From: Liolophura sinensis
Taxonomy: Eukaryota > Mollusca > Polyplacophora > Chitonida > Chitonidae
NCBI RefSeq assembly: GCF_032854445.1
Contig: NC_088295.1
Span: 26,335,385 to 26,399,384, forward strand
Length of the DNA stretch: 64,000 bases
Reading direction: 5' to 3'
The notes under the pieces are model-generated. The model made no database searches, was not told the DNA's origin, and saw only the letters and a list, made by a program, of their open reading frames with translations. Made by a program: the position numbers and the translations under genes. Positions 17,201 to 20,200 of this stretch are shown piece by piece; the stretch's first letter is position 1, and each line of letters begins with the position of its first letter.

Positions 17201-20200
17201 TGACTTTCCTAAACTTCCTGACTTTGACTGAGGCACTTTAAAGCTTTTAAAGGATACATGAAACGCCTTTTATTTCTTAATATAGAGGCCATAGGATGTG
17301 GCCGAATGTGTGAAAGTATAAAAAACCTTCTCAGCTTTCTTCTTGGGGCCTAAAAAAGGCTTTAAATCAAGTAGCATGTTGGTTGGTGTCAAAAGTGATA
17401 CTGTAATTCTTCAACCTTTTCGCATGTTTGGAGGGCGTTTATTTAACTATATTCTTAAGTTATTTCTCTGCGTAGACTGATAAAATTATACTTATTGTGA
17501 AGCCCTGAAATTGGGCAATCCAACCAATGTAGTTTTGTCTCCAAAATCAATATCAGAATTTCCATAAATTGCACTGAAAGTTGCTCTTTTATATGTGAAA
17601 AGGTGGAGGATTTAGGGTAGCTGTCAAAAAAAACTTTGTTGAGGTGGAGAGTCAGAATTGGGGGCCCAAAGCTGGTCCCACGTTTTAAGTATGTTCATTA
17701 TTGGTGTCATTTCAGAATATACCCATAGATTGACGGAAATTATGCTTAAAATAGAGAGATTATTAAGAAATATATAATATGACTCAAGAATGAAAGTTTT
17801 TTTTCCTCATTGTTTTGGCATATCTTCCTTCATTTTGCGTAAAACCGTATTCTTTGTTTTGTAGTACCTTTTCATGTACCCTTAAAGGTGATTCAAGTTT
17901 ACACATGTTTGTTGTTAGGGTGTTGGAGAAGCTGAGGGGAGAGAGGAGTGTGGTGATCACACGGTCCACATTCCCTGGAACTGGGAGATATGCTGGCCAC
18001 TGGCTGGGAGATAACCTCTCCTCCTGGCTAGATCTGTACTACTCCATTCCAGGTATGTTCTCATGGCTATATCTCTTCTACTCCATACCAGGTAAGTTCA
18101 CATTGCTTGATCTGTACTACTCCACTCCAGGTAAGTTCTCATGGCTAGATCTGTACAAATCTATTCCAGGTAAGTCCACTTTGCTAGATCTGTACAAATC
18201 TATTCCAGGTAAGTTCACATGGCTAGATCTGTACAAATCCATTCCAGGTAAGTTCACATGGCTAGATCTGTACAAATCCATTCCATGTAAGTTCACATGG
18301 CTAGATCTGTACTACTCCACTCCAGGTTAGTCCATATGGCCAGATTTGTTTTACTCCATTCCAGGTAAGTTCATGTGAACGGATCTGTACTAATCCATTC
18401 TATGTATGTTCACATGGCTAGATCTGTACTACTCCATTCCAGGTAAGTTCACATGGCCAGATTTGTTTTACTCCATTCCAGGTAAGTTCATGTGAACGGA
18501 TCTGTACTAATCCATTCTATGTATGTTCACATGGCTAGATCTGTACTACCCTGTTCCAGGTAAGTTCACATGGCTAGATCTGTACTACTCCATTCCAGGT
18601 AAGTTCACATGGCCAGATTTGTTTTACTCCATTCCAGGTAAGTTCATGTGAATGGATCTGTACTAATCCATTCTATGTATGTTCACATGGCTAGATCTGT
18701 ACTACCCTGTTCCAGGTAAGTTCACATGGCTAGATCTGTACTACTCCATTCCAGGTAAGTTCACATGGCCAGATTTGTACTTTTTCATTTAACATGATTC
18801 TGATGACTTCTTGAAGATCGGCCATGTCTTTAAACACAATAACTGCCTGTAGCCTTTTTTGACTTTTCCAAGCTATGGTCTTACCAATAAGCAGTCACTC
18901 TTGTGGACCATGGAGCTGTCTTGAAGCCATGAAAATGTACAGTAAACTAGAGGTACATGTACATACAGCAAGTGTATTATTTTATTTCAGGTATTCTGAA
19001 TTTCCAGCTGTTTGGTATCCCTTTAGCAGGCGTAGATATTTGTGGGTTTAGAGGGAAGACAAACCCTGAGCTTTGCACGCGCTGGATGCAGCTTGGGGCC
19101 TTCTATCCTTTCATGCGAAACCACAATGACCATGGCATGCAGGTAACGCGTAAAGCACACTTTTATATTTTCTTTTCTTTTTTTTCCTCACAGGTATTCT
19201 TAATTTCCAGTTGTTTGGAATACCACTGGTAGGTGCTGATATATGTGGCTTCAGAGGGATCACAAACCCTGAGCTGTGCACACGCTGGATGCAGCTGGGA
19301 GCATTCTACCCATTCATGAGAAACCATAATGCTCACACACAGGTGACTACTCTCAGTCCCCAAACCTCATCATGACTTCTACTGTCTCTACTGAGGCAAT
19401 TGGTACATTGTACATGAGCGAGTAGTTCAGTAGATAGAGGATATTGCACAGTGAAAGTTGAATACCATAAATATTGCTCTCATGAAAGTTGGAAATGATA
19501 ACCCATGAGGTGCCAAGAGTTGATTGGGTTGTCATTTCCAGTTTCTACAATAGTAATACTTATGGTATTCAACCTTCAGTGCAATTTTCTATTTATTATT
19601 TATATTTTGACAATATGATGCTATCGTGCATTTGACTGCATTTATGTTGGATGCTTCTAGCTGTAGGCCTTTACATATTTGTGTGTAGCGAGACGGTGTA
19701 AGTGATCTTGTAGGACACTGTGTCTTGTTGCGTGATGTAAGAATGACTAAACTTGTTTATGAAGTCATTTTGCTGATCTCAGATTGGTACGTCATATAAC
19801 AAAATGTTTCTTTCTTTGACATTTAACATGTGAAGTAACACTTTTCTTAGTGAAGGAAATCATGACATTTCACTCATATATAAACAATGAACGTGTTTCA
19901 CTTGATAAGGGACAGGATACGGCCTTGGTTTATCAGCCTCAGGCTGGTGCGTTGGTGTCAATAAGCTAATGTGGCCATCAGCTTTGCCTTAAATGAAGCT
20001 CATTAGAGCTCACTTTCCTGCCCCCTTGAAGCCACATTCGCGTTGCAGACGGACGCCATTTTGTTAAGAGAAATATCACAAGATTATCTGTTACGTTGAA
20101 ATTCTGCATTGGGAATCATGTCTTCATTCGCAGTAACTTATAGTAAAAACGATGGAGAATCTGAAAATGCCAAGTAGAAAGTGTTACTTTTATGTGTTGC

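What the first reader, a model, noticed from the sequence alone, without database searches (positions are those of the whole stretch)
17919..18780. Eighteen in-frame copies of a 5' splice site downstream of GH31 exon 11
The sequence shows directly that the exon 11 end plus its donor is repeated 18 times as a 39-bp unit. Thirteen codons per unit keep the frame open through seven copies, and later donors (CCAG|GTAAGT) are closer to consensus than the first (CCAG|GTATGT). Each unit edge, AG|GTAAGT, is also the motif of a recursive splice site (acceptor next to donor). Inference: the gene may make a ladder of proteins with 0-7 copies of a [17 protein letters not shown] insert just after the catalytic acid/base, or may remove the intron stepwise. 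I know of no described system of this kind.
Basis: partly seen in the sequence, partly recalled or inferred. Interest (0 to 1): 0.88.

Follow-up and report, generated by a model that had tools for sequence, protein, structure and literature searches.

The report
Repeated splice-site array in chiton gene
The end of one exon of a chiton sugar-digesting enzyme gene, with its splice signal, has been copied about 19 times in a row; this is a known kind of DNA repeat (a "mirage", described in lancelets), probably spliced away harmlessly, but it is unusual to find four such arrays so close together in a mollusc.

Summary
Exon 11 of a GH31 alpha-glucosidase gene (20 exons, 7547-26171) ends at 18052. 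A 39-bp unit (28 nt exon end + 11 nt intron start) is tandemly repeated: 19 GT sites, 13 of them CAG|GTAAGT; the first 8 keep the frame. The window is from the chiton Liolophura sinensis: its annotated isoform X2 is identical to my model, which joins exon 11 at 18052 without insert.

A protein ladder lacks support: substitutions look largely unselected, 236 of 238 aligned GH31 domains have no indel there, and two sister arrays in the gene (exons 2 and 15) have periods of 43 and 32 bp, not multiples of three. A fourth array repeats a 3' splice-site region of neighbouring NTHL1 13 times (AG kept in 12).

The kind is already described: minisatellites spanning exon-intron boundaries are called "mirages" in amphioxus; human IFI6 and UBC are related. 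New here are the phylum (ten searches listed no mollusc case), the density (four in 64 kb), and 13 consensus donors apparently passed over for a weaker first one. Stepwise (dual-specific) splicing is not excluded: the units also score as acceptors. No RNA reads could be examined.

The parts
7547..26171 (+). GH31 alpha-glucosidase gene (lysosomal alpha-glucosidase-like), 20 coding exons; isoforms of 1002 aa (exon 12a) or 1001 aa (exon 12b)
   Evidence: model built by hand with fitting splice sites; PDB matches to MGAM and GAA; 12b isoform identical to Liolophura sinensis isoform X2
17919..18052 (+). exon 11; its last 28 nt are the exonic part of the repeat unit
   Evidence: Pfam PF01055 matches the reading frame over it
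18053..18058 (+). authentic 5' splice site GTATGT of intron 11
   Evidence: junction implied by the annotated protein
18025..18781 (+). 39-bp donor-spanning minisatellite (mirage), 19 GT sites at 39-nt steps; includes a 156-bp higher-order repeat (18454-18609 and 18610-18765, 99.4% identical)
18991..19142 (+). exon 12a, tandem duplicate of 12b
19194..19342 (+). exon 12b, used in annotated isoform X2; 51-nt gap to 12a; 12a starts in phase 1 and ends in phase 0, so inclusion of both would shift the frame
8760..9125 (+). second donor-spanning array: end of exon 2 plus its donor (junction 8779|8780), period about 43, 6 matching copies counting the true one; GT kept in 6 of 6, full GTATGT in 2 of 6
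21354..21609 (+). third donor-spanning array: end of exon 15 plus its donor (junction 21369|21370), period 32, 8 copies counting the true one; ACACAG is followed by GTAGGT in 2 of 8, by another GT in 2 and by no GT in 4
37377..38439 (-). acceptor-spanning array upstream of NTHL1 exon 3 (true exon starts at 37376), unit about 90 bp, 13 copies of the 3' splice-site region counting the true one, AG at the junction in 12 of 13
35721..42726 (-). NTHL1 (endonuclease III-like protein 1) gene, four coding exons
   Evidence: 328-aa model contained in the 345-aa annotated L. sinensis protein P0121

Best explanation
The array is a 'mirage': a minisatellite that began as a tandem duplication straddling the exon 11/intron 11 junction and grew by repeated unequal exchange or slippage (inferred). 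Such a duplication is tolerated because the outermost copy next to the exon still works as exon end and donor, while all inner copies fall in the intron (inferred). Normal splicing uses the exon-proximal donor at 18052|18053 and removes the whole array with intron 11 (shown for the annotated protein, inferred for the RNA). The same process made the exon 2 and exon 15 donor arrays in this gene and the acceptor array in NTHL1, where the annotated protein again fits the copy touching the exon. The inner donors are decoys or at most minor alternative sites.
For: Array anatomy and junction. Annotated L. sinensis isoform X2 is identical over 1001 aa to the model that uses the exon-proximal donor at all three arrays of this gene; annotated NTHL1 contains the model that uses the exon-proximal acceptor. 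Four junction-built arrays in the window. DNA-level turnover: the 156-bp higher-order repeat is 99.4% identical, units 8-10 are identical to 11, 12 and 14, while no two of units 0-7 are identical. Little sign of protein selection: 5 of 17 distinct changes are synonymous in units 0-7 and 5 of 16 in units 8-18, which lie beyond the stop, against 23% expected of random single changes. Periods 43 and 32 of the sister arrays are not multiples of three. In amphioxus, Adh3 data and globin RT-PCR suggest that mirages do not disturb splicing (section read).
Against: 13 inner donors score higher than the true one (12.6 against 9.7 on a recalled human-like matrix), so ignoring them needs an explanation. 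The donor 9-mer is among the less variable 9-mers of the unit (of 39 circular 9-mers: units 0-10 none lower, five equal counting itself; units 0-7 one lower; all 19 units four lower). In the exonic part of units 0-7 third codon positions vary somewhat more than first and second (mean minor count 1.0 against 0.56 and 0.56), which is what weak coding constraint would also give. The copy next to exon 11 is not strongly diverged from the consensus (2 of 39 differences). The annotated proteins are predictions; I saw no RNA reads. The cluster of P0002 has 2 members and I saw only one. Coverage view: 12-13% of 1500 random positions in the gene lie in arrays, so 3 of 19 donors (16%) is not by itself an excess.
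Confidence: 0.8

Rival explanations
1. Alternative-donor ladder: inner donors 1-7 are used at a meaningful level and add 13-91 residues a short way after the catalytic acid/base (its place is recalled), as two downstream repeat donors are used in human IFI6.
For: 8 of 19 donors keep the frame; 13 of 19 are consensus donors, stronger than the first; donor 9-mer rather invariant and third codon positions slightly more variable; IFI6 precedent of repeat units used as donors giving three mRNAs (passage seen).
Against: Annotated protein has no insert; a 234-aa query carrying seven inserts gave 6036 candidates and one hit at E<=1e-50, 40% identical, from an unnamed source, though no L. sinensis fragment appeared there either; 236 of 238 GH31 domains carry no indel near the junction; synonymous share near random.
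Confidence: 0.1
2. Dual-specific or recursive splicing: AG|GT units act as both acceptor and donor, so intron 11 is removed in steps; the final mRNA is unchanged.
For: 15 of 19 units are AG|GT; array sites score median 8.3 as acceptors with a matrix from this gene (8.4 for the 15 with AG), against median 5.4 (leave-one-out) for its 19 true acceptors and above 99.2% of 765 intronic AGs; tandem AG|GT arrays are spliced this way in human UBC (abstract and other passages).
Against: 39-nt steps are too short for single-unit introns (general knowledge), so only multi-unit steps could work; the matrix rests on 19 acceptors and leave-one-out lowers their own scores; no RNA evidence; the copied exon end scores so by descent, and the true exon end, which is no acceptor, itself scores 8.6.
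Confidence: 0.08
3. Assembly artefact.
For: Tandem arrays are error-prone in assembly (general knowledge).
Against: 757 bp with many unit-specific variants, shorter than a long read. A published L. sinensis genome, first named L. japonica, was built from PacBio HiFi reads (passages); whether it is the source of this window was not tested (its scaffold N50 is 37 Mb, the contig of P0002 and P0121 is 96 Mb).
Confidence: 0.02

Closest known systems
Amphioxus 'mirages' (Adh3, globins BflGb6 and BflGb9, TnC, PGBD5)
   Same: Tandem minisatellite units spanning exon-intron boundaries, at both 5' and 3' boundaries, many units with splice signals, normal splicing reported.
   Different: Here in a mollusc; 39-bp units with 13 consensus donors; three in one gene plus one in its neighbour. 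Length polymorphism not tested. The original Adh3 paper is not held; known here through the citing papers.
Human IFI6 (6-16) exon 2 minisatellite (Turri et al. 1995)
   Same: Minisatellite at an exon end that supplies multiple donors (title in reference lists, passage in PMC4526556).
   Different: In IFI6 two downstream units are reported used; here no use is shown. The original paper is not held; the IFI6 unit length of 12 bp is recalled, not from a call.
Human UBC and VCX3A arrays of dual-specific splice sites (PMC10809524)
   Same: AG|GT within each tandem unit (passages).
   Different: There the UBC units are coding and splice stochastically to variable numbers; here they lie in an intron of the annotated model.
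Internal tandem repeats at human exon-intron boundaries in segmental duplications (PMC2812944)
   Same: Minisatellite units of about 30 bp at boundaries that can alter splicing (passages).
   Different: Human paralogs, with transcript evidence.

Membership tests
Mirages (minisatellites spanning exon-intron boundaries) | Tandem repeat unit contains exon end plus adjoining intron including the splice site | tested here: met
   exon 11, 2 and 15 donors and NTHL1 exon 3 acceptor
Mirages (minisatellites spanning exon-intron boundaries) | Both 5' and 3' boundaries can be affected | tested here: met
   three donor arrays, one acceptor array
Mirages (minisatellites spanning exon-intron boundaries) | Concerted evolution inside the cluster, boundary copies left out | tested here: inconclusive
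   NTHL1 array fits: core copies 97-98% alike, edge copies 64-77% (270-nt family). Exon 11 array is mixed: recent 156-bp duplications and a diverged last unit, but the first unit is 95% like the consensus
Mirages (minisatellites spanning exon-intron boundaries) | Authentic exon-proximal site used in mRNA | tested here: inconclusive
   annotated proteins fit, RNA reads not seen
Mirages (minisatellites spanning exon-intron boundaries) | Repeat-number polymorphism or somatic instability | not testable with these tools
   one haplotype only; own-genome search did not complete
IFI6-type multiple splice donors | More than one repeat donor used in transcripts | not testable with these tools
   no RNA-seq; a protein search with inserts found no L. 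sinensis product with or without them
Dual-specific / recursive splice sites | AG|GT with acceptor-like and donor-like context | tested here: met
   15 of 19 AG|GT; donor scores; acceptor scores
Dual-specific / recursive splice sites | Reads using the same site as 5' and as 3' splice site | not testable with these tools
   no RNA data

The most novel reading that the evidence does not exclude
The intron 11 array works as a bank of dual-specific splice sites: the spliceosome hops through it, giving stepwise intron removal and a low-level ladder of enzyme isoforms with 0-7 inserts next to the active site, in a genome where splice junctions are preferred birthplaces of minisatellites.
Probability: 0.12. 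Interest if true: 0.75.

Novelty: new member of a known kind. Interest (0 to 1): 0.45.

Why it matters
It suggests that exon-boundary minisatellites are not a lancelet peculiarity: a mollusc carries four in 64 kb. They are raw material for intron gain and alternative splicing, and this locus is a natural competition test of splice-site choice: one weaker donor apparently wins over 13 stronger consensus donors at 39-nt steps. If repeat number varies between individuals, as in amphioxus, the effect of donor number on splicing could be measured in nature.

Tried and rejected
Protein-coding role of the units: synonymous share near random; third codon positions of the exonic part vary slightly more (1.0 against 0.56), so weak constraint is not excluded by this alone. 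RNA structure hiding the donors: an 801-nt fold has z = -0.81 and 4 of 20 shuffles fold as well; rejected. Donor origin of the arrays at 11616 and 20548, which start about 20 and 55 nt after the donors of exons 6 and 14: best local scores within 1000 nt 21 and 15, against 48-83 for the three real cases, so not counted. Donor-only mechanism: dropped after the NTHL1 acceptor array was found. Junction enrichment: under a random-seed model P(>=4 of 7 arrays) = 0.0004, without the reported array P(>=3 of 6) = 0.004, GH31 alone without it P(>=2 of 5) = 0.03. This is post hoc, from one window, with NTHL1 exon ends approximate; I entered only the seven arrays of four or more copies inside the two gene models and left out the 14-bp row at 22502 and all TRF rows outside these genes; the coverage view shows no excess. 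Genome-wide survey: the genome search did not complete. Papers not followed beyond passages: earthworm metallothionein, C. elegans minisatellites, abalone TSSK1-like intron minisatellite; none describes a boundary array in the passages seen. Original papers on Adh3 mirages and IFI6: not held.

Full report
WHAT IS THERE. The window holds a complete GH31 alpha-glucosidase gene on the + strand (7547-26171). I assembled 20 exons with fitting splice sites; translation gives 1002 aa with exon 12a or 1001 aa with exon 12b. It matches maltase-glucoamylase and lysosomal alpha-glucosidase structures. The 12b product is identical over 1001 aa to 'lysosomal alpha-glucosidase-like isoform X2 [Liolophura sinensis]', and the NTHL1 model is contained in an annotated L. 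sinensis protein; both are listed with a longest contig of 96,433,062 bases. So the window comes from this chiton (Mollusca, Polyplacophora).

THE ARRAY. TRF reports 18025-18781, period 39, 19.4 copies. In register, 19 of 19 units have GT at the junction position, 15 of 19 AG|GT, 13 of 19 CAG|GTAAGT; the functional first one is CAG|GTATGT. On a human-like donor matrix (frequencies recalled) the 13 score 12.6 and the first 9.7. Donors 0-7 leave the frame open when joined to exon 12b, donors 8-18 give a stop. Units 11-14 and 15-18 form a 156-bp higher-order repeat, 99.4% identical.

MORE OF THE SAME NEARBY. For each of 19 donors I aligned 25+25 nt against the next 1000 nt: exons 2, 11 and 15 score 48, 74 and 83, the other 16 score 21 or less; of 19 acceptors searched upstream, only exon 12b reaches 46, because it is a duplicate of exon 12a, and the rest score 25 or less. 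Closer alignment shows 6 copies for exon 2 (GT kept in 6 of 6, full GTATGT in 2) and 8 for exon 15 (GTAGGT in 2, another GT in 2, no GT in 4). In the neighbouring NTHL1 gene (minus strand), the start of exon 3 with its pyrimidine tract is repeated 13 times, counting the true one, mostly at 90-nt steps, with AG at the junction in 12 of 13. So the thing to explain is not one array but four junction-built arrays in 64 kb.

HOW IT WORKS. In all four cases the annotated protein fits use of the copy touching the exon: isoform X2 for the three donors and annotated NTHL1 for the acceptor. This is the pattern expected if a tandem duplication across a junction is tolerated because the outer copy stays functional. 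I infer that intron 11 is removed from 18053, array included. I saw no RNA reads, and annotated proteins are predictions; the second member of the P0002 cluster was not visible.

WHY NOT A PROTEIN LADDER. Distinct changes from the consensus, each judged alone, are 5 synonymous and 12 nonsynonymous in units 0-7 and 5 and 11 in units 8-18, with 23% synonymous expected from random change. Of 2100 GH31 hits the best 120 were listed, many of them vertebrate and one the chiton's own; in these, 236 of 238 aligned domains have no insertion or deletion within 12 aa of the junction. Of the four arrays two have periods divisible by three (39, 90) and two not (43, 32). A search with a seven-insert query returned one protein at E <= 1e-50, 40% identical and from an unnamed source; this is weak, since no L. 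sinensis fragment was found at all. Against my reading: the donor 9-mer is among the less variable parts of the unit, and third codon positions of the exonic part vary slightly more than the others in units 0-7.

STEPWISE SPLICING REMAINS OPEN. With a matrix from this gene's acceptors, the 19 array sites have a median of 8.3 (range -1.4 to 12.9; four lack AG); the 19 true acceptors, left out one at a time, have a median of 5.4; the array median exceeds 99.2% of 765 intronic AGs. The copied exon end itself scores 8.6, so descent alone explains this, but dual-specific use is possible.

IS IT MORE THAN CHANCE? The repeat itself plainly is. That arrays sit on junctions: a random-seed model gives 0.0004 for 4 of 7 and 0.004 for 3 of 6 without the reported array; but arrays cover 12-13% of the gene, and 3 of 19 donors is 16%. 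I treat enrichment as a lead, not a result. A genome-wide count could not be made because the genome search did not complete (17 requests).

WHAT IS KNOWN. [quoted passage not shown] PMC3902484 (passage) adds TnC and PGBD5. Human IFI6 uses two downstream repeat units as donors (passage and reference). Human UBC is a tandem array of dual-specific sites (abstract and other passages). The original Adh3 and IFI6 papers are not held. My ten searches of the open-licence library listed no report of such arrays in molluscs; of these named molluscs, oysters or chitons. Subscription papers are not in the library, and where many papers matched only the listed rows were seen.

VERDICT. New members of a known kind in what appears to be a new phylum, with a good natural experiment in splice-site choice attached.

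Noticed in passing
18991-19142 and 19194-19342: Tandem duplicate exons 12a/12b with a 51-nt gap; including both would shift the frame, so they are probably mutually exclusive. 12a reads [10 protein letters not shown] where 12b has [10 protein letters not shown] and human MGAM PMVGSDICGF (near the active site, recalled); annotated isoform X2 uses 12b.
   Followed up: partly
37377-38439 (-): NTHL1 acceptor array: most units read CAG|AGTAAGA, so the acceptor is followed at once by a GTAAG donor-like motif that the true exon (AGGAAGG) lacks.
   Followed up: partly
11616-11903 and 20548-21160: Two more minisatellites (44 and 41 bp) start about 20 and 55 nt after the donors of exons 6 and 14 without containing them: 5 of the 6 arrays of four or more copies in this gene lie at intron 5' ends.
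   Followed up: partly
8281-8282: Intron 1 appears to have a GC donor (GA|GCAAGT).
   Followed up: no
27500-31250: Degenerate non-LTR retrotransposon-like sequence between the two genes, judged by eye.
   Followed up: no
51891-52904 (-): Open 337-aa Tc-type transposase reading frame (PF13358, PF01498).
   Followed up: no
55240-57260 and 63394-63991: Large minisatellite fields, the first with AGGTATGT-like units; no matching exon was seen by eye.
   Followed up: no
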